Source: Coemansia sp. RSA 487
Taxonomy: Eukaryota > Kickxellomycota > Kickxellomycetes > Kickxellales > Kickxellaceae
Direction: 5' to 3'
Assembly: GCA_027577595.1 (NCBI GenBank)
Contig: JANBRJ010000029.1
Span: 62,001-126,000 of the forward strand
DNA: 64,000 nt
Shown here: positions 30,673-60,579 of the stretch, piece after piece
Position numbering within the stretch: position 1 is the stretch's first letter
Layout: every line of letters begins with the position of its first letter
Position numbers and translations under genes: made by a program
The notes under the pieces: model-generated
Databases searched by the model: none
The model's input: only the letters and a program-made list of their open reading frames with translations
Told to the model about the DNA's origin: nothing

Positions 30673-31335
30673 CTACTCTTTGCGCAGACTATCCAAGCGT
30701 GCCTGCAAAGCAGCGTCGTCATCAAGCGCATCCTCAACGCCCTCGGCGGCAGCATGGTTTGCGCCGAGCGTCTGCGGAGTATCGCCAAGAGACTGGTTGA
30801 GCTGGAGGCCAATCTCATCGAGGACCTTCTGGACAACCATCTCGGACTCGTCCTCCTCGTCCTCCTCGGCGTCGTCCTCCATCGCATCATCAATGGCATC
30901 GTTCATCATATCCTCCTTCATATCCATGACCTCGGACTCGCGCTCAAAGTCCATCAGCACCTTCTGCATGCCGGGCAAGTTCATCGACTTGTTCATCGAC
31001 TTCATCGCATTCGTCGCGCCGCGCATCGCCATGGACATCTCCTGGTTGGAGCTCATGGTCTGCACGCGCAGCGCCACGCCCTGCAGCGACGTGCGCATCT
31101 GGTAGAACTTTTGGATGTACCGTCGTGTACGCACAAGATCTTTGGCCATCACTTTGCACGCGTTTATTTGCCCGGCTTGCGCCGTCTTCTTGATATCAGC
31201 TATCAGCTTCTTCTCTTGCACCTCCATTTTGGTGCGCTCCCGGTCGAGTTCGCGCTGCGCGCGGGTCAGCGCACGCAGGTTCTGGCGCATCTTTTCCCGC
31301 GGCGTCTGGCGCTTGCCAAAGAGAAAGTCCAGCAT
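30673..31335 (-). CDS. VPS2: ESCRT-III subunit VPS2 (CHMP2A-like)
   Basis: 220-residue ESCRT-III protein that co-polymerises with Vps24 on Snf7 filaments and recruits the Vps4 ATPase during multivesicular-body sorting. It begins MLDFLFGKRQTPREKMRQNLRAL, the amphipathic basic N-terminus of CHMP2A/Vps2. The helical core follows (ERTKMEVQEKKLIADIKKTAQ, KVMAKDLVRTRRYIQKF, LPGMQKVLMDFERESEVMDMKEDMM). Then comes an acidic linker and a C-terminal LQARLDSLRK that fits the MIM1 motif bound by the Vps4 MIT domain. Length and order are standard. It is divergent from the Mpv17-family gene. Confidence 0.95.
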   Translation of the reverse strand: MLDFLFGKRQTPREKMRQNLRALTRAQRELDRERTKMEVQEKKLIADIKKTAQAGQINACKVMAKDLVRTRRYIQKFYQMRTSLQGVALRVQTMSSNQEMSMAMRGATNAMKSMNKSMNLPGMQKVLMDFERESEVMDMKEDMMNDAIDDAMEDDAEEDEEDESEMVVQKVLDEIGLQLNQSLGDTPQTLGANHAAAEGVEDALDDDAALQARLDSLRKE

Positions 31336-32306
31336 TATGTCTTGTTTTATTTGCGCTGGTGTCGCTCGTTAAGAGAGAGGTTTGGATTGGAGGGAAATTC
31401 TTACAAGATGAAATGAATTGAAATACAAAGAAGGAAATATAAAAGGGATAAAAAGAGAGGTCAGATGTGGGCGAAAGAAGCGATATGAAAGCGTCAGCAC
31501 TTTGCCCCTTTTTATCTATGGCTAGCTCAAAGTGCCCCCGAACCCTTTTGCTGTTTCCTGTTTACTGCTGTCGATATGCCCCCACTCGCGTAGGTTAAAG
31601 TGTGAACCACCATCACCACCGCTCGAAACGCCAAGCTCCACAGCTTCCGAGCAAATGCCAGAGAATAGCAAAATGCCGACGTGGCCTTGTAAGCGGGATT
31701 CATGAGCTTGGCAGCGAAGGAAGGCTGGGCAGTGGCTTTCCGGAATGAATGGCCCTATTCCAGGCGAGCTGGCTCTATGGCGAGTCGTTGGTTCCGAGCG
31801 AACCGGTCTCTTTGCAAGCTCCAACAATGCCCTTGGCACAAGCGAGATGTGCGAACAAACTATGAAGAAGACCCCCCACGCGCCGCTCATTCTGGTCCCG
31901 AAAAGAAGTCAGAAGTCAAGCAAATGACCTGTCCACGCTTTAAATTTCCCCGCTCTTCATCTCGTCCCCCTCCCCGGAAACCACTCAACTGGCCTGTGAC
32001 GTTTGGCAATCAGGAACGGAACACAAAAAAGCCCCGCGTTATTTGCAACCTGTGCTCATAAAACCCGCACCCGCGCACTTGGTGCACCTAGCTGCACTGC
32101 GCTGCTGCCTAGAAAAGCCCTCTTTCATCTCTCCTGTTGTCACCGTTTATCTTTAACAAGCATTTGTACCTTATCTTTACAGTTTTCCACACTTTATTCG
32201 ACACGGAAGAGGTATTTGCTTCTGACACAGCACCGCATCCTTTTTAAGCGCAAAAGAGGCTTTTTTCTTACCTTGCCTAGTAAAGTAGCAAACCAGAAAG
32301 CAAAAA
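31336..32306. promoter_or_regulatory. Divergent promoter region, VPS2 and Mpv17-like
   Basis: About 1 kb, relatively GC-rich, between two outward-facing genes. Open frames of about 120 codons occur on both strands near 31520-32060, but neither has a recognisable motif and they overlap each other, so I treat them as chance. Confidence 0.4.
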
Positions 32307-33158: not shown

Positions 33159-36100
33159 CTAGCTCTTTGGCATATGCTGCGGTGTATCTGAGATAGGAAG
33201 CGGGGTGAGTTGCTGCTTTTTGATAGCAGAAGCCGCCATGTTGTCGCGCATCCAGTCCTTCCAGCGCATCAGCGGGACGGGCTCCAATGCCATACGCTCG
33301 TGGTCGGTGATAAACTCGGCGGCGGCTTCTTCGCGACCCATGGCGCGCGTCCTGCCCCACGAGAAGTCGTCGAAGCGCCAGAACGCATACAGCGGCATCA
33401 CTAGGTTCCAGATAGGGATCGCAGCAACGTAGATGGCCATCCAGTACACGTACGCGATCCGCTGCGTGGTCAGCAGAATCATCACGCCCTGCATCACAAA
33501 CGCCATGGCCATCAGCAGCAGGGGCAGCGACACTGGGTACCCGATGCACTCGGCAATGATTAGGTAGTAGAAGAACACGACGGACGCTGGCAGCACCACG
33601 TTTCCCACAAGGTCCATCAGAACCAGGAACTGCATCGAGCAGCAGAACGTGCCACACAGGTCGCGCACCAGCACCAGCTCCAGCAGGTTGTGGATGGTCG
33701 AGTTGATCCACCGCCGCCGCTGCGACACAAGGGTCGAGAACTTGCTGGGCACCGTGGTGCGGCAGATCGCGCGGGGCACGTAGATCAGCTTGCGTCGCGG
33801 GAATGCGCGCAGCAGCACCGTGGTCAGATAGCGGTCCTCGCCAAGCAGAAGCAGGTTCTTCTGGTGCAGCGTGTGTGTGTCGTTGGAGCTGTATGCAGCA
33901 ATGACCTCTGGCGCCACAAGCAGCGGCACCAGGGCACCGGGCTGCTGCTGCTGCTGCTGCTGTGGATTGCGTGCAAATACACGGTACATCGAGCAGCAGC
34001 CCGGAAGACAGGTCACACCGCCCCACAGCGACTCAAACGCTTTGCTCAGGTGGTGCGAGATATAGTACTCGTAGACCTGGATGCGGGTGACCCACGAGTC
34101 GCGCTTATTGGCAATGCGCGTCTCGCCGCACAGACCCATGATACCCGGGTCGCGCTCCATGGCGGCCACCAGACGCGGCATGCACTCGATGTCGATGGCC
34201 GTGTCGGCGTCGACCATTAGCACGTACTCGAACTGGTCCGGGTTGATCTGCGCCAGCCGTGACGCCGCGCAGCACAGCTCGAACTCTAGCGGCGTCAAGT
34301 GGTCGTTCATCAGAACGTTGTGTAGCCATTGCAGGATGATCAGCTGTGAATCGCGCTTGCCGCGGTTCCCGGCCTTTGCAACCCCGTTTGTGCGCTCCCA
34401 GGTCGTCCCCACCTTGATCACCAGGATGCACGGAATCGCGATGCCGTTGCCGCTGGTGTACGACCCCGAGATCACCTCGGCTGCGTTGTACTCGCGTGGG
34501 CCCTCGCCGATCGCGATGTACGGCAGCGGCGCCGTGCTACCTGGCGCGTGGCAGTCGATCATGGAGCGCAAGATGTCTGGAGTCATGCGCGCATCGTCGC
34601 CGCCGGTGGCCGGGACCTGGCCATCGGCGACGATCAGCACGACCTTTCGGGAGCGCGCGTAGTTGTTCAATGCCACCGAGTCCAGCGTCGTGCGCAGCGT
34701 CGCCTCATCCTCGTTGCAGCACGTAACGGCGACAAGCACATGCGGGACGCGCGTGGCTGCGCCGCCGTGGCAAAAGTGCTTTGTGATCTTGGCCAGCTGC
34801 AACGAGAACGCCCAGTCAAATAGCACCGCGCACGCCAGCTTGACCAGCAGCATGGCGTTGAGCACCACGGTGACGGCGATCGTGACGCCCGATGTGATAA
34901 CACACCCGACTGTGCCGCCCTCGATGCGCCCGACGCGAAGCTGCGCGTCCCAGCACGCCACCAGCTGCTGCAGCGCAGCGCTCCGCGATACTGCAATTGT
35001 TGCGTCGGTGCCCACGATGCCGCACAGCGTGTGCGTCAGCTGTTTGCCAAAGAACTCGTTGGTAGGCTCGGTGGTGTTTCTGCCAGCGTCATCTGTCGGC
35101 GGAAGATGCGACAAGTACGGCTTGAGCGAGTAGACCACTTCGTTGTACACGAACAGCTTGTCCGGTCCGCCACGGTGCCTCAGCACGTCGTCCCACTGAT
35201 ACACAACCCACTTGTTTGTGCGCAGCCGCCGCAGCGTCCTCCACGCTGCCTCTGACGCCGTGCACTGGCGCTGCGTGTCTCCGCCGAGCACGCTGTAGCA
35301 GTTGCTGGGCGACATGCCTGCGGGCCAATGCTTGCATCGCCGCGATTCCTCGGGAAATGGCGCAAACAGCGCGCTGGCGTCGCCACCGATGCTTGCGCTT
35401 GGCAGCTCGAGGCCCTCGGCGTCCTCAGGGTCCGTCACGTCGTAGATGCGGCCGCGGATGGAAGTCAGTTTTTTATGCGATGTCGTTGCGTTGGCACCAT
35501 GCTCTGTGCTCAGCGTGTGCAGCGAGACAGACTCCACAGGGTGGCACAGGAAGAACGACAGCCCGAAGGACACTAACGCTGCCAGCACCGTGATACCGAC
35601 GATGATCAGACACAGCGCGATCTTCTCGCGCCACGCTTGCCGCTTGCCTGGCGTTTCCTTGCGCAGCACCCTATGCAGCACGATGCTGGGCATCCAGAGC
35701 GTCACGAGCCGCGCGAACCACCGCCAGTACGGTCCGATCTGCGTGCTATCGTGGTACCGCTTGTACGGACTGCCAGATGCAGGCGTTGCTCCTCGGCGCC
35801 TGCCGGGCACGGTGCTCTTGGGTCGACACTGCCCGCTGGCCCGCCTCAGATGATGTTCTGTCTGGGCGGTCAGTGACGCCAGCGACGCCTCGTACCGCAG
35901 CGCTTGCTGTGTCCGTGAGTCCAGATACTTGAGAGACGCACGCGAGACCGTGTCTATGATGCGCTTGTGGATTCCTGGCAGCGGTGGTGGTCGTGGGGAT
36001 TCGCTAGTTTGCTGCTGCTGCTGCTGCTGCTGCTGGTTCTGCACCCATCCGCTCCCTGGAAGCATCGTGTTTTCGCCAAGGCTGCTCAGATGATTGCTTG

Positions 36101-37813
36101 GAGCAACAACACAGATCGGTGTGTTCAGTGGACTGTTGCTTCGTTCCCTTGGCACATTGGGCACCGTTGCTGGGCGATACTCTGCCTCTTGCCTGCGTCG
36201 CTCGAGGCGCTGGCCCTTTCTTATAATCGGTTGCTCGCTATTGTGTTTTTGTTTCGCTGGCTCAGGCACGCCAACAGCCTGGCGGTGATGATGGCGAACG
36301 GGAAGACCCGCACCGTCTCTCTTGGTATGCTGTCTTGGGACCAGCTTGTGAGGCTTTGGCGCGATATTTGCATGCCCGCCGCCAGCACGCAGCGTATCTG
36401 TGGACGGTATCTGCATTTGTGTCGTATTTGGCGGCGGATTCACCTTTGCGTTCTCCTGCCGGCGTAGCTTCTTGTGCTGCAGAATCTGTGTCTTTGGCGT
36501 AATACTCGTGAGTTCCTCTGGAATGGTTGGCAGCTCCGATAGACGTACGGGTCTGTTTGTGTTCCTTTTATGCTTACTGTTCGCGGAAGGCTGCTTTGAT
36601 TCAGGAACTGGTGGATGAGATCTGTCTGCCAACTGCATGTATGGTATAGGCGCACTGTGTCGCGATAGTGGTGTCGATGGGATTGGTGGCGGTCTCAGCG
36701 GCGTTGGAGGCACATGGCGTGCCGACTGTACCGCCGAAGATACAGGCGATAGCGCCCTCTCGATCGGCGACCTATGCACCCCAGCGCTCGACGCCGGCGG
36801 ATGTATTTGCGCTGGTGACAGCATCGCGGGCATCTGGATGCCGTCGGGCACCTTCGGGGATCGCAGCCGGTGCTCGGTGCCGCGCAACATGTCGGCGACC
36901 TCGTAGTACCCGGAATCATGGGCCAGTTCGGCCGCGCACCGCCGGGTCGTGTACTCTGTCGGTGCGCGGTCTGCTTTGCAGTCCAGAAGCTCACGGCATA
37001 TGGCCACACGCCCGGTGTAAGCGGCGTACATAAGGGCCGTCCACCCAACCTTGTCTTGCACATTGACTCCGGAGCCACCGCTGTTCAGCAACGCTGACAC
37101 TGTTTGCGTGTGGCCGCGGAAGGCAGCTAGCATCAGCGCGGTCTTCCCTGTGTTGTCGCGCATGTACAGTGCACCGGCCTTGACAGTGTGCTTGGATATG
37201 TGGAGGATCGCATCTTTGTGGCCTCGGTAAGCAGCGTAGTGCGCCGGCGTTGCGCCCTCCTTATTTTGGGCATGTGCGTGTGCCCCGGAGCTGAGAAGCG
37301 CCGCAACACACTTGCCATTTCCACGGGCCGAGGCGTAGTGCAGGGCCGTGTTTCCTCGCTCATCTAAAGCGAACAACTCATACCAGCGTGGCCAGCCTGT
37401 GTTAATATAAGGGCATGCCAGTAGTGAAGGTGCATCATGGGATTATGAAATAGCAGAGAAAACTTGCCTTTGTGGTTGATTATGTCCACGTCGTTCAGAC
37501 ATACCCAGTGGACGATGCGCACTGCATTGGCTCTGGCTGCAACCATCAGAGGTGTGCACCCGCCTGCAAAGACGGATGCGCTGCTGGTCCGCACCTCTCT
37601 GAGCTGCGAGAGAAACGCGCGCAGATCATTGTTCATACAAGCATCCAGCAACCGCTGTTGTCCTGCTTGTTGTGGTCGGTCGTGTTCGGAGTTACCCAGA
37701 AGAGTCCTATGATCCAGCATGCATTTGCTTGAATACGCAATACGGATCCCGTGCGCGTTGGAATGCGCCCGGCTGGTGCTGGCATGAGCTGAATGTACAC
37801 GACCACGATCCAT
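33159..37813 (-). CDS. Ankyrin-repeat chitin synthase, division 2, class IV-like
   Basis: Membrane glycosyltransferase making chitin from UDP-GlcNAc, 1516 residues from two exons (37813-37468 and 37363-33159). The 104-base intron has a GC donor (AAAG|gcaagt) and acceptor ctttag; this join restores the ankyrin spacing (HKDERGNTALHYA). An acceptor at 37397 would also be in frame. Residues about 85-280 are ankyrin repeats (GCTPLMVAARA, GNTALHYASARGN, GATPAHYAAYRGH, GKTALMLAAFRGH, GWTALMYAAYTGR). A 400-residue Pro/Gln-rich linker with a Q9 tract follows, then a TM segment (about 697-722), a cytochrome-b5-like region (WVVYQWDDVLRHRGG) and TM 936-964. The catalytic domain has VDAD 1166-1169, EDR 1301-1303 and QRRRW 1330-1334. 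A terminal TM cluster and SWGRTR follow. All catalytic motifs are intact. The start ATG at 37813 is my choice. Confidence 0.92.
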
Positions 37814-37935
37814 TGTATCTATCCAGTACGTGCTACCTTTTTTCGTTTGTTGGGATTTAGAAAACACAATGCTGCTTTGTCTTGAAATATAAAGGGAAAT
37901 GTTGGGAGTGCTGCTGGTGCATTTGCAGATAAGAA

Positions 37936-38221
37936 CAATCTGTGCGCACATTTGTTTGTCCTGGATCTTGTCTGCGCGACATCTTCAAACTCTATACAAA
38001 TGTCAAAGATGTGTGGAGGGAGAATAATAGGAAAACGTACCGCAAAAATAGCCACTAGTTATAGAATTTTGGTAGCATTGGATCGTGTGTGGAGGGCATC
38101 TGTTGCAGTAATCAACATTTTCCAGCACGATACATTATGTCCAAAAGCTGTTTATTCTTTTGTGGAGAAGAATGGAAAGGAAAGCACATACAAACAGACA
38201 AACAAGTGTGCGCACAGATTG
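37936..38221. repeat. 25-base inverted repeat around TGTGCGCACA
   Basis: The left arm (37936-37960) and the right arm (38197-38221) are reverse complements at 24 of 25 positions and are separated by 236 bases. Each arm contains the perfect palindrome TGTGCGCACA flanked by CAATC on one side and TTGTTTGTC on the other. Similarity stops abruptly inside the arms and no clear target-site duplication flanks them. It could be a pair of binding sites for a dimeric factor or the ends of a short MITE-like insertion. Confidence 0.85.
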
Positions 38222-38629
38222 CGTTCCTTCTCACGAAGTGCATTCGGTTTTGCCAAAACGCCACCCCGTGGAGGGGCTACGAAAGGTCAAGCTTTTGGCA
38301 AGAACGTTTGTAGGTTTCGGTGTGTTTTCTGCGAATTGATGGCCGACAGGGATATCCACGGGTATCCTGATCCGAAACTGGAAGCGGAAACGTTGCACTG
38401 GAGCAATACGAAAAGGCTCTCAAGCATGTTGAGCTTTTTCTGGAAGCAAGTCCTATTGGTAGTTTTTCTGGATGGTCTGGCTATTACCAAGATGATAAAG
38501 CTCTATCAAGTGTGGCGGTGGGACAGGTTTTGCCAGCCCAATGAGCGAATGGCGTGGGGCACCAATGATTGGCTGGTTAGGATGGAAAAAATAAGAGAAC
38601 ATGCTGTGCGTATGGACTTTTTCTTTTAA
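38000..38629 (+). CDS. Possible orphan protein in the CHS/CHS7 promoter
   Basis: An ATG-started open frame of 209 residues that does not shadow any known gene. It begins MSKMCGGRIIGKRTAK and has one hydrophobic segment (FFWKQVLLVVFLDGLAI) followed by a Trp/Arg-rich tail (VWRWDRFCQPNERMAWG). No family is recognised. A frame this long is uncommon by chance in intergenic DNA but not impossible, and codon use was not tested. The right arm of the inverted repeat lies within it. Confidence 0.22.
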   Translation: MSKMCGGRIIGKRTAKIATSYRILVALDRVWRASVAVINIFQHDTLCPKAVYSFVEKNGKESTYKQTNKCAHRLRSFSRSAFGFAKTPPRGGATKGQAFGKNVCRFRCVFCELMADRDIHGYPDPKLEAETLHWSNTKRLSSMLSFFWKQVLLVVFLDGLAITKMIKLYQVWRWDRFCQPNERMAWGTNDWLVRMEKIREHAVRMDFFF

Positions 38630-39139
38630 AAAATCTATTTTTGGCAGGTGAGTTTGGGGGGAGGGGCGAACGGAGCCACCAGCCAAAAAAAGACAGCAGC
38701 CACAGAACAGAACACACTTTTGGCACCACACAGAACAGAGACAACCAAGGGCAGCCGTGCAGCACTGCAGCCAACAAGAAAACCCAACCAGCATACATTT
38801 CTGGTCGTCACTGTGAGAAAGGGGGACATGAAATTCTTGTTGTTACTTTTTCAACTTTTTTAAACTCTGTGCCTTTCTTGTCTCTTTTTGCTTCTTTCAC
38901 TTTTTTTTGCACCTTTTCAAGCTCACTTTGCCTTTTTATACGTCCTTTCTGGCCATTTTCTGTATTCCTCCTATATCATCCCTGGTGGTCTTTCTTTTGC
39001 TGAGCAGAGGCAAAACCGCCCCCACTTGTTTCTTTATTTCTGTTGTTCAATCAACTTGCATTTGGTGAGACGCGCACTTTGCACACTTAACAAACCCCAC
39101 CCCACCCCCAAAAGGGCACTCCTGTAAACAAAGGACAAA

Positions 39140-40600
39140 ATGTACAAGTTCGGATACTACGACGAAATATGCTCGACGGTGCAGATGGCTGCGTGTCCGC
39201 TTCTGGGCGACAACCAGATCGGGTACGAGCCCAGCTGCTACGCGCGTAACATCGAGGTGCGCAGCTCGCTCATTTTCCAGACCGCCGCGCTCATCATCGA
39301 CATCATTGCGCTATTCATGACGGTCATTATGATATTCCACATTCGCTCCAAGTACACTGCTGTTGGGCGCAAGGAAATGGTTTTGTTCTTCTACCTGTAC
39401 TTCATAATGACCATCCTGGACTTTATCACAATCTCGGGAATCATTCCAATCTCCTCGGTCGTCTACCCTGTAAGTATTACTATTCTGATGGGCAAATTGA
39501 AGCAAAGAAAAATACCATTTGCGCTCAGTTACGCCTTCCTTGCTTTCTCTTTCGCTGCGTTATTTACTTTTTTTCCTCTATGGCGATGCAGCAGCCCCGG
39601 GACAAAGGGATGATAGCCATGCGCTTAAAGAGTAGGCAACGAACGACTGAGGGTGGTTGTTGGAACTTGCACACAAACAAAGGTGTTTTGTCAAAGTGAG
39701 AAATTAAACCATGACCCAACAACAACCTCTCCTCCTATTATTATCTCCCAAACTAATGTATTTTTAATATGTCATATGGTTGCCACATCTCTCTTTCTAT
39801 AGTACTTTGTTGCTGCATACCTGGGGCTCACCAGTGCCATGTGCTGGTGCCTGATGCTCAACGGATTCATCGGGTTCCAATGGTCGGAGGACGGCACGGC
39901 GTTGTCTCTGTGGACATTCCATCTAACATCGCTCCTAATCTTCGGGCTAATGTACTTTATCTCGATAGCCACGTTCAAGGAAATAACGCCGTCGTTCGAC
40001 AAGGCCCATCCGATAGGGCTGTACGTCCTGTACTTTATCTTCAACCCGTTCTGTCTGGCAGTCTACGTCGTGCTGCAAATAATCCTGGTAGTTAACACGC
40101 TGGATGAGTACTGGCCGCTAGGTAACATTTGCTTTGCGCTCATTTTCTTCATCATCGGCCAGGTCATCCAGATCTTCCTTAGTGACAAGATTTGCAATGC
40201 TATCAAGCATTACGTCGACGGCGTGTTCTTTGGTACCATTTGCACACTGCTCTCGGTCATGATGATCTACAAGTACTGGGACTCGATTACCAAAGAGGAT
40301 CTGGAGTTCAGTGTGGGTGGAAAGGGTAACGTGTGGGAAGTTAAGGAGCTTCTCAACGAGGACGATGAGTTTGCGCCGTATGCAGGCCAAGCTGCCAACA
40401 CTATTGGTCACTCAGGCGTTGCCTTTGCAAATACCAACTCGTACTACGGAGGAGGGCAGCAGCAGCAGGCTTACATGGCTCAGCAACAACAGCCATACGA
40501 CATGCCTCAACAGCAGCAGCCACCGGCGCAACATTACGCCATGTCCCAGCAGCAGCAGCAACAGCCACATTATCAGCAACAGGCGTATCCTCCCTACTAA
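39140..40600 (+). CDS. CHS7: Chitin synthase export chaperone Chs7
   Basis: ER membrane chaperone that lets Chs3-type chitin synthase fold and leave the ER. Two exons (39140-39469 and 39803-40600) separated by a 333-base intron (gtaagt...ctatag), 375 residues. Family signatures in order: IGYEPSCYARNIE, ALFMTVIMIFHIRSKYTAVGRKE, YFVAAYLGLTSAMCWCLMLNGFIGFQW, NPFCLAVYVVLQIILVVNTLDEYWPLG, and MMIYKYWDSITKEDLEFSVGGKG. About seven TM segments. Unlike most family members it carries a C-terminal tail of about 50 residues rich in Gln, Tyr and Pro with several Q3-Q6 runs. It lies head-to-head with the ankyrin chitin synthase, its likely client. Confidence 0.95.
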
Positions 40601-41080
40601 GCCAACAAGCAGATGTTTCTTTTGTTACAGCGGGAAGATGTTTCAAAGAAAGGAAGAACCAAATTTTACATTCTTTCTCTATTTACGAAAGGGTTTGTGG
40701 TTGCTGTTCAAAATGTAAACAGCTTTTCTCTTTCTTTATAACTATCACATTTTCCATCTTTTTTTGTCGAATACGAGTGGGGTTTTGTCCTTTTAGTTCT
40801 CAGTTGCATGGCAACGAAACATGGTTGCTCTGTCACTATTTTTTTTATCTATTCCTCCGTTTCTCTATTTTACTCTTTGCATTTGTTCCTCTCTTTTTAT
40901 CAGTTTCTCCCAGCAGCAGCAACAGCAACTAAATGAATAAACTGTATCGATACCTCCTTCCTCTTTGACCCTTGCTAATCTAATTCGTTTATTTTTCTAT
41001 ATACACTTTTCATTTTGCGTTTGCATTTCCACGTTCATCTCGCACACTAATAGACACAAATAGCAAGACACAGCTGACAA
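40601..41080. other. Intergenic, CHS7 to VPS53
   Basis: 480 bases holding the CHS7 3' region and the VPS53 promoter. T-rich, with a short CAGCAGCAGCAACAGCAAC run near 40911. No gene seen. Confidence 0.5.
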
Positions 41081-44000
41081 ATGGCAGAGATAAAGTTGGT
41101 GCAGAGCAGCAGCAGAAGCAGCAACAACAGCGGCAGCAACGAGACTGCTGCCCAACCACCGTCGTCGCCAAAAGGAAACGCGGAAGGTACCAAGAGGCTG
41201 GACAGATCGGAGTTCTCGGTCAGCCGGTACGTCGACCGCTTGTTTCCCGACGACGAGTCGCTCGAGAACATCGAGACGGTAAGCATGGGCATTAAGCGGC
41301 GGCACCAGACGGTAGTGCGCGAGATCCGACAAGTTGTACACGACCAGTCGACCAGCGATAACCAGCGGGGGACAACGATGCAAGGCGTCGAGGCGACCAA
41401 GGCGGCGATCGACGAGCTGTACACACGCATTTCGGAGATGCGTGCAAAGGCGCGGACCTCGGAGCGCATGGTGCTGGACATCACGCAGGACATCAAGGCG
41501 CTGGACTTTGCAAAGCGCAACCTGACGCACACGACGGCAACGATGCGCAGGCTCCAGCTGTTCATCGGATCCGTCGAGCAGTTGCGCCGGATGAAGGAGC
41601 GACGGATGTACGGCGACGCTGCCAAGCTTGTACCGGCTGTCGACGGACTGCGCGAAGGATTTGCCGGGTTCTCCAAGGTCAAGCCCGTTGCCGCGCTCAA
41701 TGAAACGGCCCGGGGCTTGCAGCGTGCGCTGGGCAGCCAAGCGTACCAGGATGTAGAGCGCGCCTTCGATGCACAGCACGGCGTGTTTACCGGCGAACAC
41801 CGCGTTGTGCACGACGCGTGCCTGTGTCTGGATGCCCTGGGCGACGCTGAGCACGCGCGCGTCATCGACATGTACTGCGAATTGCAATTGCGCTCGTATT
41901 CCGCCATCTTCCAGCTCGACGACGACGTTTCGCAGCTCGAAAACATATCGCGCCGCTATGCGTGGCTGCGCCGTATCCTGCGCAACTACACCGAGGAGCA
42001 TGCCAGCCTGTTTCCTGACCGGTGGCGGGTTGGCGAGGTGCTTAGCCGCAAGTTCTCGGTCCTTACGCGCGACCACCTAGGCGAGATCATGGCTACGCGC
42101 GACGAGATCAGCGTTGAGCACCTCATGACCGCAATGTCCGACACAATGGCCTTCGAGGTACAGTGCAACAAAAAGTTCAACATTGTCCCGCACCAGTCCA
42201 CTCCATCGCCAGAAGAGAGCGACGATGCACTGGCAAATGTGTATATCTACGAGGATAGCGGGGTAAGCGCTGAGTCATTCACTGGGCTGATATCCTGCGC
42301 ATTCGAGCCATACATGTCAATATTCATCCGTGCTGAGCGGACAAAATTCGACAAGATGGTTGCCAAGTTCCAGCAGGAGCCCGTTACCGTTGACGATGAC
42401 CCGTCGCTAACTGTGCTGTCCTCGAGCACCGACCTCCTGTACCAGTTCCGCGAGTCCCTCAGGCAGTGCGCGGCATTGTCGACAGGCCAAGCAATGGTTG
42501 ATCTGTCGCAAGTGTTCAACCAGTGTCTGTGCACCTACGCGCGCGACGTTCTAGCACACAAGCTACCGCGCATCTCCTCTTCCTCATCGTCTGCCGCTGC
42601 TAAAAACTCGCCGTCGCTGCTTGACGACCTGAAGCATGTGTGTCTTATCGTCAACACCGCCGACTACTGCGCATCGGTGGCTGGGCAGCTCGAGCAAAAG
42701 ATTGTCGAACGAGTCAATGGCGAGTTCAAAACCAAAGTCACGTTTACTGCATGCCGCGAGGCTCTGCTTACAGCCATCAACACCAGCATTCGCGTCCTGG
42801 TCTCCGGCGTTGTTGACACAATGTGTGATTCCGCATTTGCCACGCTGGCGCAGGTGCCGTGGCAGACGCTGCACATGGTCGGCGACCAGTCGAGTTACGT
42901 CATGCTCATCGTGTCTGCGATGGAGGCAGCTAGCCAGACCATCCGCCAGACCATGAGCGGCACACGCTACTTCCGCTCGTTCTGCGACAAGTTCGCCAGC
43001 AGGTTCATCGAGAAGTACGTGGGCGCCATCAACAAAGCAGGCCCTATTTCGGAGGTCGGTGCCGAGCAGCTGCTGTTGGATGCCCAAGCCCTTAAATCGG
43101 CGCTCCAGGACATGCCGATCCTGGGTGAAACAGTGGACGATAAGGAAAAGCACCATCCTCCAGCGGCGTACACGCGCATCGTTGTCCAGGGCGTTGGCAA
43201 GATCGAGGCCATACTCAAGGCCATTTTGGCACCCAGCGACCCGCCCGACGCCCTGGTCGACCGCTTCCTGCTGCTCTTCCCCGCCGCTCCCAAGGACACC
43301 TTCCAACAGATCCTCAGCCTCAAGGGCATCCGGCCGGCCGAGCACCACGTCTACTCCCGCATTCTGCGCCGCAAGCTTCGCGACGCCGACGCCGACAAAA
43401 ACGTATCTACTAGTGCTTTGGTGTCCAGAGAAGTGCCAAACGCGAACAGCGGCACTTCGGAGCCTGCTGCTTTGCAGAACGCCGTACCCGGCTCTGTAGA
43501 AGGAGGAGACTTGGGTTCCTCTAGCATGTACTCGACGCCAGAGCCCAAAGACGCCATTCCCAGACACGTCGCATACGGAATGTCCTCATCAGCACCATTG
43601 TCTTCCACCAGGCTCCACCAGCAGCTAGTGCACCAGAGATCTGGGCTGGGAAAGCACTCGCGTCTCGACAGCAATGCAAGCAGCTCCAGTAGCATGGTAT
43701 TCGGCGGTGGCAGCAGTGACAATATCAGCGGAGCAGCTATGGGCATGAGCTCTAGTACTTTTACGCAATCAATGACAGCTCGACGAGCGCTACATGCGGA
43801 TCCGCTGGGAATCACAGGTGCCGAGGGCAGCAGATCCCCAAACACAGCCCAGATCAATAGGGCTGGGAGATCCAGCGTGATGTCATCGCCAGGGGCTCGC
43901 CAGCCCACATCGTCGCTGCAGCAAATGATGTCCACGCCAGTGATTCCTTCCAACAGATCGTACACAGCGGAGGATATTGAGCAGCAGCAGCAGCAGCAGG

Positions 44001-44137
44001 CAAATGCAGAGGGTAACGACAGCACGGACAGCTCGAACTCGCCCGTGTTCGCTTCGCTCGCTGCAAATGCGACTGCTACGCGTACAAAACTCAACGAAAA
44101 CTTTCGCAAGTTCATGAACAACATGCGGCGTAATTGA
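41081..44137 (+). CDS. VPS53: GARP/EARP tethering complex subunit VPS53
   Basis: Golgi-associated retrograde protein complex subunit that tethers endosome-derived vesicles at the trans-Golgi. Single exon, 1018 residues. After a Ser/Asn-rich N-terminus comes the conserved Vps53 N domain: FSVSRYVDRLFPDDESLENIE, IDELYTRISEMRAKARTSERMVLDITQDIKALDFAKRNLT, then RRYAWLRRILRNY and LFPDRWRVGEVLSRKFSVLTR. The C-terminal helical part keeps VGDQSSYV, TRYFRSFCDKFASRFI, VGAEQLLLDAQALK, YTRIVVQGVGKIEAILKAIL and DTFQQILSLKG. The family normally ends about there (near residue 770); here about 240 residues of Ser/Gln-rich low complexity follow, including a Q6 tract. The function of that tail is unknown. Confidence 0.93.
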   Translation: MAEIKLVQSSSRSSNNSGSNETAAQPPSSPKGNAEGTKRLDRSEFSVSRYVDRLFPDDESLENIETVSMGIKRRHQTVVREIRQVVHDQSTSDNQRGTTMQGVEATKAAIDELYTRISEMRAKARTSERMVLDITQDIKALDFAKRNLTHTTATMRRLQLFIGSVEQLRRMKERRMYGDAAKLVPAVDGLREGFAGFSKVKPVAALNETARGLQRALGSQAYQDVERAFDAQHGVFTGEHRVVHDACLCLDALGDAEHARVIDMYCELQLRSYSAIFQLDDDVSQLENISRRYAWLRRILRNYTEEHASLFPDRWRVGEVLSRKFSVLTRDHLGEIMATRDEISVEHLMTAMSDTMAFEVQCNKKFNIVPHQSTPSPEESDDALANVYIYEDSGVSAESFTGLISCAFEPYMSIFIRAERTKFDKMVAKFQQEPVTVDDDPSLTVLSSSTDLLYQFRESLRQCAALSTGQAMVDLSQVFNQCLCTYARDVLAHKLPRISSSSSSAAAKNSPSLLDDLKHVCLIVNTADYCASVAGQLEQKIVERVNGEFKTKVTFTACREALLTAINTSIRVLVSGVVDTMCDSAFATLAQVPWQTLHMVGDQSSYVMLIVSAMEAASQTIRQTMSGTRYFRSFCDKFASRFIEKYVGAINKAGPISEVGAEQLLLDAQALKSALQDMPILGETVDDKEKHHPPAAYTRIVVQGVGKIEAILKAILAPSDPPDALVDRFLLLFPAAPKDTFQQILSLKGIRPAEHHVYSRILRRKLRDADADKNVSTSALVSREVPNANSGTSEPAALQNAVPGSVEGGDLGSSSMYSTPEPKDAIPRHVAYGMSSSAPLSSTRLHQQLVHQRSGLGKHSRLDSNASSSSSMVFGGGSSDNISGAAMGMSSSTFTQSMTARRALHADPLGITGAEGSRSPNTAQINRAGRSSVMSSPGARQPTSSLQQMMSTPVIPSNRSYTAEDIEQQQQQQANAEGNDSTDSSNSPVFASLAANATATRTKLNENFRKFMNNMRRN

Positions 44138-53531: not shown

Positions 53532-55148
53532 TTAGAATGGGAAGCCACCGGGACCGCCAAACTGGAATGAAAACTGCTTTCCAGAGCCTTCCTGGAAGAA
53601 GAAGGGCTTGCCTCCGCCACCTTGCTGGAATACAAATGGATTACCACCACCGAAGCCACCTTGTCCAAATGGATTTCCTCTAGCACTGCCAGTTGGATCA
53701 TTTGGATCATGGCCCTGGTCGTACTGCGCTCGCTTTTCCTCGTCCATCAAGAGCTCGTATGCCTCGTTTATTTCCGCCATCTTCTTTTCGACCTCCTCTT
53801 TCGACAGGTCACCACGATAGCGGTCAGGATGCCACTGCTGCGCCATCTTACGGTGCGCTCGCTTGATCTCTGCGCTTGTAGCATCATGCGATACGCCAAG
53901 CGCTTTGTAGTAGTCTTTGCGCTCTGCCATTCTTTTTTTGTTCTCCAGCTGCATCTGCCGCTCGCGGAAGCGCTGGTGCTGATTTTTACTGGCTCCTCTG
54001 TTCGCCATCGCACTTTCAAGCCGGCCAAATGTGCTCTTCGCTTTCTCCATATCATCCTTTTCGCACAGTGCATCAAACTCGCGGCCAAGTGCGTCAATAT
54101 CCTCCGGATCGGCAGCAAGCGCACGTTTGCAGTTGACCAGCACATGGTCCCATTTCTTTGTGTTTGAATAGCCTTCGCAAGCAATTCCAGCCAGGTACGA
54201 AGCAAGCTTTGACGGTGTGGTGGCAACACTATCCATGGCAACAATAAACTGTGTATATACGCCGTCAACTTCGTCCAGTAGGCCACCTTTCCCGCTTACA
54301 GGTGCTACAATGCGATTGCATGTGTTCCACTTTTTCTTTTTGCGATCTTCTTCGAGCCTTGTCATCTTTCGTTCGATCGCACGCAGCTGCATGTAAGTTG
54401 ACTTGCATTTCTTGTTGTCTGGATCTGATTTTAGACACATGCGTATAAACTCCATTCCGCGATCCCGCTCGTTCAGAGCAAGGAAGTGGAGATTTGCGAG
54501 CTTTTCAAGCGTCTCAAGGTCGTTGGGACTGATGCGCACGAGCCGTCCGAGATCGGCACTTGCGCCCTCAAGATCACCCGCTGCGACCCTGCATGTTGCC
54601 CTAGTCTTCAGTGGCGCGATGCACAGCGGAGAAATCTGTACAAGCTTTGTTGCTGTCTCGATGCACTCGCTATACTTTTTATCAGCAAACAACTGCTCCA
54701 GCTTCTTGCTCAGCTGCTCTGCAAGCTTGACCTTTTCATCAAGCTCCCTGAACTTATCCAGCAGCTTTTTGCTGTCTTTCTTTGTCTTGGCAACATCGCT
54801 GCTTGCGCCGTTATAGTTGCCTTCTTTGAGATAGGCCTTTGCGCGCTGGTAGTATGCCTGGTCGAAATCCGGCTTGAGTTCAATCGCTCGCGAAAAGTCG
54901 CGAATTGCCGACGCATGCTTGCTGACGGTGAGTAGCGTAGTGGCTCTCTTAAAGTATGTAAGATAGTTCTGCGGGTCCTTTTCCACAGCAGTGTCGTAGC
55001 TCCTTATCGCGTCGCTGTACTTTCCGCGCAGAAGCAACGCATTTGCCTCTTCAATGTATTCCTTGGTTGTTTTTTGTTCTGTGGCTGAAACAATAGCCAG
55101 AGAAACAAGCACTAGTAGCGCTGTACTCGCTAGAAGCGTATAGCGCAT
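53532..55148 (-). CDS. DNAJC3: ER TPR/J-domain co-chaperone, DNAJC3 (p58IPK)-like
   Basis: 538 residues from the ATG at 55148; the open frame extends four codons further but has no earlier ATG. It starts with a signal peptide (MRYTLLASTALLVLVSLAIVSA), then about nine TPR-like helical repeats (IEEANALLLRGKYSDAIRSYDTAVEKDP and LTYFKRATTLLTVSKHASAIRDFSRAIELKP are clearest). A C-terminal J domain at about 412-478 has an intact HPD at 440-442 (QQWHPDRYRG), followed by a Gly/Phe-rich tail. This layout is that of DNAJC3/p58IPK, which binds misfolded clients in the ER lumen and hands them to BiP. No KDEL-type retention signal is seen, as in animal DNAJC3. The tail contains repeated F-x-F units (PFFFQ, FSFQF). 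Confidence 0.92.
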   Translation of the reverse strand: MRYTLLASTALLVLVSLAIVSATEQKTTKEYIEEANALLLRGKYSDAIRSYDTAVEKDPQNYLTYFKRATTLLTVSKHASAIRDFSRAIELKPDFDQAYYQRAKAYLKEGNYNGASSDVAKTKKDSKKLLDKFRELDEKVKLAEQLSKKLEQLFADKKYSECIETATKLVQISPLCIAPLKTRATCRVAAGDLEGASADLGRLVRISPNDLETLEKLANLHFLALNERDRGMEFIRMCLKSDPDNKKCKSTYMQLRAIERKMTRLEEDRKKKKWNTCNRIVAPVSGKGGLLDEVDGVYTQFIVAMDSVATTPSKLASYLAGIACEGYSNTKKWDHVLVNCKRALAADPEDIDALGREFDALCEKDDMEKAKSTFGRLESAMANRGASKNQHQRFRERQMQLENKKRMAERKDYYKALGVSHDATSAEIKRAHRKMAQQWHPDRYRGDLSKEEVEKKMAEINEAYELLMDEEKRAQYDQGHDPNDPTGSARGNPFGQGGFGGGNPFVFQQGGGGKPFFFQEGSGKQFSFQFGGPGGFPF

Positions 55149-55788
55149 AGTAGTTACCACCGACTATATTCTAAAAATACTATGGCCAATCTAGCAAACA
55201 GCGCAGAGGCAGTCAAGAGCGTAAAATTCCAATTACAAATTTGCAGAATAACGGAGATAATGCATAGTAGAATGAGAAGAGAGCTGGGAAGCAGAAAATC
55301 TACAAAAAACAGTCTTGCAGAACTCCACTTTACCCCACGCACATGACACGCCTGCACATTGGCTGGGGGTACTTGGCCGCCTGCGATTGGCCAGCATTTA
55401 CTTAGACATGCTTGAATGCTTGGTGCTTCACTCCACGTGCTTTTTAGACAAGCTATTGGTGATGTCAGTCTGCTAAGGAGTATTAGAACAGACAAACCAG
55501 GTTATTTGCATAAACTGAGAGCCAAATGGCATACGCTCCTCTTGTGAAACGCCCCTGAACAAACAAATGTCATATGCGCATTAAAAACGTCACTAGTAAT
55601 CGATCCATTGTGTATCCGTGCCATTCGAATCATATGGAATGTTGGTGATATAAAAAGGTAAGAGTGTCTCTTGTTTCAAACAAAAGTGGTTGACATCAAT
55701 AGCATTTGTAAGATTTTCTGTATTCAATGTTTTTCTTTCTGTCACCACACACACACAAGCACTACTACATCTTTTTCTATTAACCGCA
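55149..55788. promoter_or_regulatory. Divergent promoter, DNAJC3-like and orphan gene
   Basis: 640 bases. Holds inverted CCAAT motifs (ATTGG near 55360 and 55389) and a TATA-like TATAAAAA at 55649-55656, about 133 bases upstream of the rightward start. No other gene seen. Confidence 0.5.
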
Positions 55789-57864: not shown

Positions 57865-60579
57865 TCAGCAAAAATACAAAAAGAAATATTTCCATATAAA
57901 AACTATACAGACATTCGCTGCCAGCAGGGCAAACGTAAGTCGCATAGTGGTTCGGTGTATGTCGAAAGCAGAAAAAACAAGAGAGACACCCGTCAAGTAC
58001 CAAAGACCGACTCTCTGTTCGTCACAATGTATATCCAGCGTCTGCAAAAAGTACATCTTTATCAGCATAATTGCCGTTTTAGCAATGAATGCAGATGGTG
58101 CTTCCTGATCGCTTCTGAGCTTTGTCGCTTGCATGTATTTTGGACGCTTGTGTCCGAAGGCTGTATTTGCATTTGAGACACTAGACAGGTCTAAGCGGCG
58201 CTTCGAACCAGCACCCACATTGATTTCATGGCTGTTGAAATCGTCTTCACTAATACCTAAGTTAGACTCGGCAGTTTCGTTGATTGCAGAATCTTCTGAA
58301 TCGCTGCTGCCTTCGATGTCGTTTTTCGCCTCTAGCCCGCTATCGCGTCGCCTAGATATCACAAGCCCAACACTATGCCGCCTAAACATGGTCGATAAAG
58401 GAACATTGCGCACGCTATCAATCGTACTCTCCTCTGTTCCTCTTCCGGATAGTAGAACTATAGGGAATTTAGAGGAATCGCCGGAATTTCTTGGCTCCAA
58501 GCAATACTTGCGCTTATCCTTGTCCATTCGTGGGATGCTATTTAATCTAGGTGTCATAGATCCCGGTGTATTGGTGCCGTTACTAGCCGCATCTGAGTCG
58601 TGAATCTCAAATCTGGATGCATCGTATCTGCGATTATGCCACAGGCTACGTTTTTCTGTTATCTGGTGAATAATATCGTTGATGTTTGGTCTTTTTGACT
58701 CGCTGTGATTCAATAGCTGTTGCATGATCCCTTGAAGTTCCGATGGAATATCCTCTGCATATGGCGGACGCCGAATTTTCGTATAGTCGATATGCTTGAG
58801 GCTAAGAATGTCACGACGCAGCACGTCAAGGTCGTCCACATCTACATAAGGAAGTCTGGAATAGCAGAGATAATATAAAACAATTCCAAGAGACCACATG
58901 TCTGCTTTTGTAGAGTAGCTGTCAAGGTAGCGGCCCATGCTATCAACTTCTATAAGCTCCGGAGCCATAAACTCTAGCGTTCCTGTTGCTCCCGTGCGGT
59001 TACGCTTTTCCAATTGTGACAGTATTTCACATTCGCCGAAATCGGTCAGCATAAGTCGTGGCGTTTCGCCGCTGGTTTCTTTATTGGCTGGGTCGTTCCA
59101 GTGCAGTAGTAGATTCATATGTTTGAGATCGCGATGGATAATTTGCAGCTGGTGAAGGTGTGCCAGGCCATTGCAGATGTCAGAAAAGAAAGACCATATT
59201 TGATCGATAGACAGGACCCTTGGCCCTCCATCAGAACCACCGATCTCTGCGTTTAAGGTGGATGATGGTATTGAATCTGCTATATGGCGCTTTTGCTTTC
59301 GTCTGTTCAGAATCTGCTGTTTCAGCGAAACGTTCGAGATACCCGCATCTGCTGAGTCTATTTTGGGCTCCATATATTCTTGCAGGTTGCCACCGTTTGC
59401 ATACTCCATCAATATGAAAAGACAAGGAACTCGAGGTCCAAAATTTGTCAGACCATGCATCTCAAGCCAAGAGTGCTTGTATTCGACAACGTTAGGATGG
59501 CGAAGGCTCTCAAGCAGCTTGACTTCGCGCAGCATACGCTTGAGCCAAACATGATTGTTGCCAACAGCAACCTTTTTCACCGCATAGTGGCCAAGAAACA
59601 CACCGTCTAGCACATGCTGGCAAGAAAACACAGAGCCGCGCAAACCCTTGCCAAGTTTATTTTGCTCTGTGAAAAAGCGTTCATAATAGCCCTGATTAAA
59701 CGATTTTGCCGATACTCCGTCTGTAGAAGCACTCTTTTCTTCAGCCATCGTGCGAGATTCTGATGTGGAGTCGTTAGGTACAGAAGATATAAGCATGCTC
59801 TTTTCGTTGTCGTTATCGTTGTCGTTGTCGCTTTCGCCAAGCCTCTCTTCCAATAGTTCGCTCGAAACTGCCCCCTTTATATAATCTTCTTTGGTATCTT
59901 CTAAAACATGACTCCTTTCGCCACCGATTTGAAAGTGCGAAATGTCCGGAAGGTTCTGAAGTTGTCGTTTGTAATACTTGTCATCCGAATCATAATAAGG
60001 TTGCTGATCTTCTTCAATCTTGCCGGCACTATCTTCTAGCGAAAATTGAGGTTTTTGTAATTTCAGATATCGTGCAAGTACTTTAAAATAGTCCCTGTCG
60101 GTCGTGATTGTATCGTTATGATCGGAGTAAGTCTCTGACACAACATGTGGATCCCAGCTGCTCTCAGAGTATCTGCTCAGAGGTCGTAGACACGTTGGAC
60201 AGACAGATGCTTTGCGCTCCAGCGGCTCCAGTAGTCCGCTATTACTAGTTCTGCTAGTATTTCCGCCCCTACCAACAACACGTCGCTCATCCATTTCAGC
60301 CGACTCTTGACTATGCAGAACACCAAGACGATGGGGTACAACATGTCTTACTTCGACGCCGTTATCCTCTTGGTTGTACAGAACGATCTGGCCAGTGGGG
60401 CGCTTGTACCTACACATTGTCACCAAAGCAAACAGATAAGTACAAGGTAATTAACAAGCCGTTTTTATATCCTTCATTGTACTATCGCAGAATAAACAAC
60501 ACAGGTGGGTATGTGTGGCAAAAGACGAGAGGCACACTTACAGAATAACACGCCATGGCGAGTAAGGAATGAGCTGCAT
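57865..60579 (-). CDS. IKS1: Protein kinase IKS1-like
   Basis: 860 residues from two exons (60579-60542 and 60409-57865), 132-base intron (gtaagt...tgtag). The join gives MQLIPYSPWRVILYKRPTGQIVLYN, matching the conserved IKS1 N-terminus, and a zinc-type CPTC lies at about 83-86. The kinase domain starts near 262: LGKGLRGSVFSC (P-loop), YAVKK (Lys291), FGPRVPCLFILMEYANGGNLQEY (an IKS1-specific hinge), HRD 438-440, DFG 469-471 and GTLEFMAPELIE, so it looks active. A 50-residue insert sits between hinge and catalytic loop. A DNDNDN acidic repeat precedes the domain. The last 30 residues contain a hydrophobic stretch (FALLAANVCIVFIWKYFFLYF) that could anchor it to a membrane. The yeast orthologue is poorly characterised. 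Confidence 0.92.

What the first reader, a model, noticed from the sequence alone, without database searches (positions are those of the whole stretch)
33159..37813. Ankyrin repeats fused to a class IV-like chitin synthase
The protein joins about five ankyrin repeats, a long Pro/Gln linker, a cytochrome-b5-like segment and a complete division 2 chitin synthase (VDAD, EDR, QRRRW). Known fungal chitin synthases carry myosin, cytochrome-b5 or DEK-C modules; I do not know a described N-terminal ankyrin module on a Chs3/class IV-type enzyme. It could dock the enzyme to a cytosolic regulator in place of a Chs4-type activator. The ankyrin and synthase parts are in one uninterrupted exon, so the fusion is not a splicing artefact.
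Basis: partly seen in the sequence, partly recalled or inferred. Interest (0 to 1): 0.75.

Follow-up and report, generated by a model that had tools for sequence, protein, structure and literature searches.

The report
Ankyrin-tailed class IV chitin synthase
A fungal gene makes a cell-wall chitin synthase whose cytosolic tail carries a block of protein-binding ankyrin repeats, and it lies back to back with the gene for a dedicated chaperone of this enzyme type, which suggests a regulated chitin-making unit with an unusual docking module.

Summary
On the minus strand (33159-37813) one gene encodes a predicted 1516-residue protein: five Pfam-scored ankyrin repeats, a basic Pro/Gln-rich linker of about 400 residues, a membrane helix, a CHS4-domain region and a complete division 2 chitin synthase. 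Of two published class IV expressions, one fits exactly, one with a single substitution. The frame runs unbroken from four repeats through the synthase. Corrections: start codon and first repeat lie in a separate upstream exon (predicted 104-nt intron, junction not settled), and the cytochrome-b5 match is below Pfam's cut-off and lacks HPGG. New: the next gene found upstream, divergent and 1326 bp away, is CHS7, the ER-export chaperone of yeast Chs3. I favour a docking, sorting or recycling adaptor. I found no description of this layout in the open-access papers searched; fungal genomes could not be searched, so its spread remains open. New variant of a known kind, moderate interest.

The parts
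37468..37813 (-). Exon 1: start codon, degenerate ankyrin N-cap, canonical ankyrin repeat 1 (residues 1-115)
   Evidence: codon score weak (0.04); an in-frame ATG further upstream cannot be excluded (ORF 37984..37364)
37364..37467 (-). Predicted intron, 104 nt, AAAG|GCAAGT...CTTTAG| (GC-AG), phase 1; junction not settled
   Evidence: best of five models on PF12796 (by 1.3 bits), PF00023 and PF13637, but GT-AG models score 1-3 bits higher on PF13606 and PF13857
33159..37363 (-). Exon 2: ankyrin repeats 2-5, linker, membrane and synthase parts, stop codon
36864..37660 (-). Ankyrin domain, residues about 52-282 (five canonical repeats plus degenerate caps; span includes the intron)
35640..36857 (-). 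Low-complexity cytosolic linker, residues about 285-690, Pro/Arg/Ser/Gln rich, basic (54 K+R vs 23 D+E in residues 285-660)
35565..35621 (-). First predicted membrane helix, residues 697-715
   Evidence: hydropathy
35355..35483 (-). Weak cytochrome-b5-like stretch, residues 743-785 (below Pfam cut-off, no HPGG)
34929..35207 (-). CHS4 domain (PF22997), residues 835-927, inferred to lie outside
33243..34745 (-). Chitin_synth_2 (PF03142), residues 989-1489, with DADT, QVYEY, EDRYL, QRRRW, SWGRTR
37814..39139 (.). Intergenic region between the divergent gene pair, 1326 bp, no clear coding signal; its one long ORF tested has no Pfam match
   Evidence: six windows of about 200 nt within it score -0.29 to 0.10 in six frames
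39140..40600 (+). CHS7 chitin synthase export chaperone gene, exons 39140-39469 and 39803-40600, intron 39470-39802; 375 aa with Gln-rich C-terminal tail
   Evidence: PF12271 E 1.7e-34 (exon 1, profile 1-114) and 6.8e-71 (exon 2, profile 115-286 of 287); GTAAGT donor chosen from three in-frame candidates

Best explanation
This is a class IV (Chs3-type) chitin synthase whose N-terminal cytosolic tail has been lengthened by an ankyrin domain and a long flexible basic linker; it is encoded divergently with the CHS7 export chaperone. Chs7 helps the enzyme fold and leave the ER; at the membrane the GT2 domain polymerises GlcNAc from UDP-GlcNAc and extrudes chitin. The ankyrin block, held on a flexible tether on the cytosolic face, most likely binds a cytosolic partner that places, retains or recycles the enzyme (sorting or docking at tips or septa), much as the myosin head does for classes V and VII. 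Shown here at sequence level: the fusion, the class IV signatures, the intact motifs, the CHS7 neighbour. Inferred from known families: topology, Chs7 dependence, catalysis. Inferred only: what the ankyrin domain does.
For: Continuous coding through domains and linker. Ankyrin and PF03142 far above cut-off. Second class IV expression of PMC4141765 exact, first with 1 of 29 fixed positions different, against 7 of 45 and 7 of 35 for two of the three class VII expressions, the latter tested as a leading part. CHS4 domain above cut-off. CHS7 is the next gene found, divergent; PMC12653383 (trafficking section read) says class V and VII enzymes do not need Chs7 whereas ScChs3 uses it, and a highlight of PMC7389182 (listing) says N. 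crassa CHS-4, class IV by the table in PMC12653383, depends on CSE-7. First predicted membrane helix at 697 puts the repeats in the part corresponding to cytosolic region I of ScChs3, which holds the exomer signal and phosphorylation and ubiquitin sites; the N-terminal region mediates oligomerisation (PMC5412288 passages), and the cytoplasmic N-terminal domain binds AP-1.
Against: No transcript, protein or fungal relative was seen. No partner is known. Sorting-like motifs in the linker are no more frequent than in shuffles. The class call rests on published expressions and Pfam, not on a tree, and one class IV expression fails strictly at one position. Hydropathy found only two helix regions before the GT2 domain, while published ScChs3 models differ in number (four helices linking the extracellular domain in an AlphaFold model; at least six in all), so the topology is approximate. 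Exon 1 has a weak codon score. The structure model of the ankyrin region failed (pLDDT 39).
Confidence: 0.6

Rival explanations
1. The ankyrin block takes the place of Chs4: it binds or mimics the activator and switches on the catalytic domain directly (first reader's idea, or an intramolecular version in which the block folds back on the GT2 domain, which is also cytosolic).
For: Ankyrin and GT2 domains are both inferred to be cytosolic and a linker of about 400 residues could reach. PMC12653383 says Chs4 probably contacts the catalytic domain of ScChs3. Chs4 is itself a repeat protein (Sel1 repeats; recalled, no call).
Against: The Chs4 site of ScChs3 is narrowed to cytosolic region III after an extracellular region, not the N-terminal tail (PMC5412288 passages). 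Presence or absence of a Chs4 gene here is untested.
Confidence: 0.15
2. The repeats are a dispensable, lineage-specific accretion with little effect on the enzyme.
For: GC3 is mostly lower in ankyrin and linker (0.51-0.78 in windows 101-700) than in the synthase part (0.75-0.89 in windows 701-1500), and the linker is low-complexity sequence.
Against: The repeats match the ankyrin consensus well (five PF00023 stretches, E 1.8e-28), with no stop or frameshift in the four repeats of exon 2; a neutral appendage would be expected to decay.
Confidence: 0.15
3. Gene-model artefact: an ankyrin gene and a chitin synthase gene abut or overlap and are transcribed apart.
For: Codon signal weakens in linker residues 301-400, where another frame scores slightly higher (-0.02 vs -0.07). 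No transcript data.
Against: The frame is open for 1427 codons (chance about 4e-32). The linker as a whole (residues 285-640) scores best in the annotated frame (0.07 vs -0.12 to -0.22 in the other five) and its synonymous-codon score exceeds all 500 mononucleotide shuffles.
Confidence: 0.07

Closest known systems
Class IV chitin synthases (S. cerevisiae Chs3, filamentous Chs4/ChsF; division 2, PF03142 with CHS4/Cyt-b5-like outer region)
   Same: Catalytic motifs, class IV signatures, CHS4 domain, broadly the helix-outer region-helix-GT2 order, association (here by gene neighbourhood) with Chs7
   Different: Cytosolic N-terminal tail of about 695 residues with an ankyrin domain, against 167 in ScChs3 (PMC5412288); Cyt-b5 match below cut-off; a short poly-Gln run within the GT2 domain
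Class V/VII chitin synthases (N-terminal myosin head, C-terminal DEK_C)
   Same: Division 2 synthase with an added N-terminal cytosolic module
   Different: Ankyrin instead of myosin head, no DEK_C, class VII expressions not matched, CHS7 next door
Chs7 export chaperone (PF12271)
   Same: Neighbour protein covers the profile almost fully (1-114 and 115-286 of 287)
   Different: Gln-rich C-terminal tail; paired head to head with its presumed client
Ankyrin-repeat membrane proteins such as NOMPC and TRPA1 channels
   Same: Among the best solved-structure sequence matches of the ankyrin region (NOMPC 5vkq first, E 5.9e-69); membrane proteins with an ankyrin stack
   Different: Generic ankyrin similarity only (262 distinct sequences at E up to 1e-12, 60 shown, many of them designed proteins); no channel domain, no sign of common origin

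Membership tests
Division 2 chitin synthase | PF03142 without PF01644/PF08407; QXXEY, EDRXL, QRRRW | tested here: met
   no division 1 domain listed at E up to 1; both division 2 expressions matched, neither division 1 expression
Class IV chitin synthase | Class-specific expressions of PMC4141765 Table 1 | tested here: inconclusive
   second exact; first fails strictly at one of 29 fixed positions (W for F/L)
Class IV chitin synthase | Position in a CHS tree | not testable with these tools
   no fungal reference sequences available
Class IV chitin synthase | Outer region with CHS4 or Cyt-b5-like domain | tested here: met
   CHS4 27.7 and 30.4 bits vs cut-off 27; Cyt-b5 itself below cut-off, and PMC4734345 (passages) says it is absent from some class IVa and IVb members
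Class IV chitin synthase | Dependence on Chs7 | not tested
   only gene neighbourhood seen
Class V/VII chitin synthase | Myosin head PF00063 and DEK_C PF08766 | tested here: not met
   neither listed at E up to 1; three class VII expressions unmatched, one of them tested as its leading part
Cytochrome b5 | Pfam match above cut-off and HPGG heme motif (motif recalled) | tested here: not met
   17.2 and 21.1 bits vs 23.7; no HPGG
Ankyrin-repeat protein | Tandem repeats above Pfam cut-off | tested here: met
Chs7 chaperone (neighbour) | PF12271 | tested here: met

The most novel reading that the evidence does not exclude
A lineage of fungi has built a compact chitin-synthesis module: a class IV synthase carrying its own ankyrin docking domain, co-expressed from one divergent promoter with its Chs7 chaperone, so that sorting and activation that yeast does with separate factors (exomer, Chs4) are partly built into the enzyme.
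Probability: 0.15. Interest if true: 0.7.

Novelty: new variant of a known kind. Interest (0 to 1): 0.45.

Why it matters
In the surveys I saw, the common added domains of division 2 chitin synthases are myosin head, DEK_C and a cytochrome-b5-like domain. An ankyrin-tailed class IV enzyme beside its chaperone gene would give a handle on how fungi with expanded and partly unclassified chitin synthases (early-diverging ones; PMC5353729, passages) place these enzymes. Any partner of the ankyrin block would be a new regulator of chitin deposition.

Tried and rejected
Relatives: two tblastn-confirmed scans of viral contigs, with exon 2 and with the catalytic core, found none; the tool drew its patterns partly from poorly conserved stretches such as poly-Gln, so these scans were insensitive. 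A degenerate-motif scan of viral contigs found nothing. The same motif in prokaryotic contigs gave 14 loci, of which 3 (L001, L010, L012) show weak GT2 similarity over the catalytic region (25-27% identity, E 6e-8 to 2e-5); not informative for a fungal class IV tree, so no tree was built.

Splice models: one search found 117 GT-AG or GC-AG pairs that keep the frame open; I compared five. A first comparison was unfair because fixed-length cuts ended at different places; repeated with a common end, PF12796 bits were GC346-AG450 47.9, GT309-AG437 46.6, GT324-AG437 46.4, GC346-AG417 43.8, GT313-AG417 43.4. The GC-AG model also leads on PF00023 (45.3 vs 44.9 for GT309) and PF13637 (36.5 vs 36.3), but loses on PF13606 (36.9 vs 38.0 for GT309) and PF13857 (35.8 vs 38.6 for GT324 and 37.1 for GT309). 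GT309 has a GTATGT donor. I keep GC-AG because it leaves repeat 1 at near full length; this is a judgement.

Linker motifs (SH3, CDK, S/T-P, dileucine, YxxPhi, 14-3-3): none above shuffles. An acidic-dileucine-like DHRTLL at residue 34 was seen, significance not tested. ORF 37886-38629 in the intergenic region: no Pfam match, codon score -0.09, rejected as a gene; but the codon test is weak, since exon 1 of the synthase gene itself scores only 0.04 and one intergenic window (38620-38818) reaches 0.10 (Chs7 exons 0.22 and 0.15). Class expressions: for class II and for one class VII row only a leading part was tested, and 2 of the 8 class III rows; class I and V have none. Organism: the gene set, introns and Chs7 say fungus; Kickxellomycotina or another early-diverging group is my guess, not tested. 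The pairing of a class IV CHS gene with CHS7 was looked for in two paper searches (20 of 37 papers listed, 5 of 5): listings and abstract starts only, no such report seen there. All 10 paper searches are used.
Full report
What is there. The minus strand from 37813 to 33159 carries one gene of two predicted exons encoding 1516 residues. Exon 2 lies in a 1427-codon open frame; at this base composition such a frame has a chance probability of about 4e-32. The ankyrin region scores PF12796 E 6.8e-25 in exon 2 alone and E 9e-57 with five PF00023 stretches in the spliced first 290 residues. The synthase scores PF03142 E 5.7e-188 over profile positions 25-527 of 527. QVYEY (1211), EDRYL (1291), QRRRW (1330), DADT (1167) and SWGRTR (1450) are intact.

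Is the fusion real? Four canonical repeats, the linker and the synthase share one exon. With codon usage trained on other genes of the window, the annotated frame is best of six in 13 of 15 windows of 100 codons, tied in one (601-700) and second in one; the last is inside the linker (residues 301-400) and is the weakest spot of the model. The linker as a whole (285-640) scores 0.07 against -0.12 to -0.22 for the other five frames, and its synonymous-codon score exceeds all 500 mononucleotide shuffles. The first methionine of the exon 2 frame is residue 183 of the spliced protein, inside the repeats, so exon 1 is needed for a whole ankyrin domain unless translation starts at a non-ATG codon. 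Exon 1 has a weak codon score (0.02 for residues 1-100; 0.04 for the exon). My preferred junction is AAAG|GCAAGT...CTTTAG|ATGAG, a GC-AG intron of 104 nt. Of five junctions compared it leads on PF12796 by 1.3 bits and on two more ankyrin families by less, and is beaten by GT-AG models on two others. Only cDNA can settle this; all five leave exon 2 from the DERGN residues onward unchanged.

Which class? PMC4141765 (Table 1 read in its section) gives class-specific expressions. The second class IV row matches exactly; the first differs at one of 29 fixed positions. Two class VII rows (one cut to its leading part) differ at 7 of 45 and 7 of 35 positions; none of the three class VII rows matches. 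No myosin head or DEK_C is listed at E up to 1. The CHS4 domain passes its cut-off (27.7 and 30.4 vs 27 bits); Cyt-b5 does not (17.2 and 21.1 vs 23.7) and HPGG is absent. I therefore call it class IV-like; a tree could not be made.

The neighbour. Divergently, 1326 bp upstream, lies CHS7 (PF12271; exon 1 E 1.7e-34, exon 2 E 6.8e-71), with a GTAAGT...TATAG intron chosen from three in-frame candidates. Between the two genes I found no clear coding signal, though the codon test is weak. PMC12653383 (its trafficking section read) states that ScChs3 leaves the ER with Chs7, while class V and VII enzymes do not need it; a highlight of PMC7389182 (listing only) says N. crassa CHS-4 depends on CSE-7. 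The neighbourhood thus supports the class IV call and suggests co-regulation through a shared promoter region; the latter is inference.

How it may work. Hydropathy gives a first membrane helix at 697-715, then the region with the CHS4 domain, a second hydrophobic region near 946-970, the GT2 domain and C-terminal helices. This is broadly the Chs3 order, but published ScChs3 models differ in helix number, so the topology is approximate. In ScChs3, experiments place residues 1-167 in the cytosol; this part holds the exomer signal and phosphorylation and ubiquitin sites, and the N-terminal region mediates oligomerisation, while the Chs4 site is narrowed to a cytosolic region after an extracellular one (PMC5412288, passages). 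PMC12653383 adds AP-1 binding at the cytoplasmic N-terminal domain. By position, then, the ankyrin block extends the trafficking and docking tail, not the Chs4 site. My preferred reading is a docking, sorting or recycling adaptor, comparable in role to the myosin head of classes V and VII. No partner is known and linker motifs are not enriched over shuffles, so this step is inference.

What is known. Surveys and reviews of fungal chitin synthases (PMC5353729, PMC5122149, PMC4734345, PMC4141765, PMC12653383; passages, plus one whole section each of the last two) describe PF00063, PF00173, PF08766 and division 1 domains; the word 'ankyrin' does not occur in the held main text of these five. In PMC8778642 it occurs 11 times and in PMC4471660 4 times; in the passages shown (12 of 17 places; 10 of 10) it does not concern a chitin synthase. 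PMC5353729 mentions 14 further rare domains in a supplementary table that I could not read. The paper searches showed 40 of 75 papers, 10 of 10 (8), 30 of 765 (15), 7 of 7 (16), 20 of 20 (42), 2 of 2 (43), none (48) and 1 of 1 (49); no title or abstract start shown describes the fusion, and most of these papers I saw only as listings. This is weak evidence of novelty, since genome databases may already hold such proteins as unreviewed annotations.

Verdict. It is a new variant of a known kind of enzyme, of moderate interest, raised somewhat by the CHS7 pairing and limited by the absence of comparative and transcript data.

Noticed in passing
39140-40600 (+): CHS7 export chaperone gene (PF12271) divergent to the chitin synthase, with a Gln-rich C-terminal tail partly coded by an imperfect 39-bp repeat (40481-40572, 2.6 copies).
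   Followed up: yes
30676-31368 (-) and 41078-44137 (+): Nearby genes include an ESCRT-III Snf7-family protein (PF03357) and Vps53 of the GARP complex (PF04100), both endosomal traffic factors; possibly coincidence, but Chs3 recycles through endosomes.
   Followed up: partly
36010-36035 and about 33942-33962: CAG-type triplet runs coding poly-Gln, one in the linker and one inside the GT2 domain between QVYEY and EDRYL (seen, not listed by the repeat finder); possible length-variable sites.
   Followed up: no
37364-37467: Possible GC-AG intron inside the ankyrin domain; use of GC donors elsewhere in this window was not checked.
   Followed up: partly
2910-5891 (-): Protein with trypsin-like peptidase and PDZ domains (PF13365, PF12812), resembling the fungal Nma111/HtrA type (name recalled).
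   Followed up: no
53535-55163 (-) and 57868-60450 (-): A TPR-DnaJ protein and a protein kinase, the latter with a hydrophobic C-terminal stretch seen by eye, lie about 2.7 kb apart with a PQ-loop gene between; they resemble DNAJC3/P58IPK and an eIF2-alpha-kinase-like protein (names recalled).
   Followed up: no
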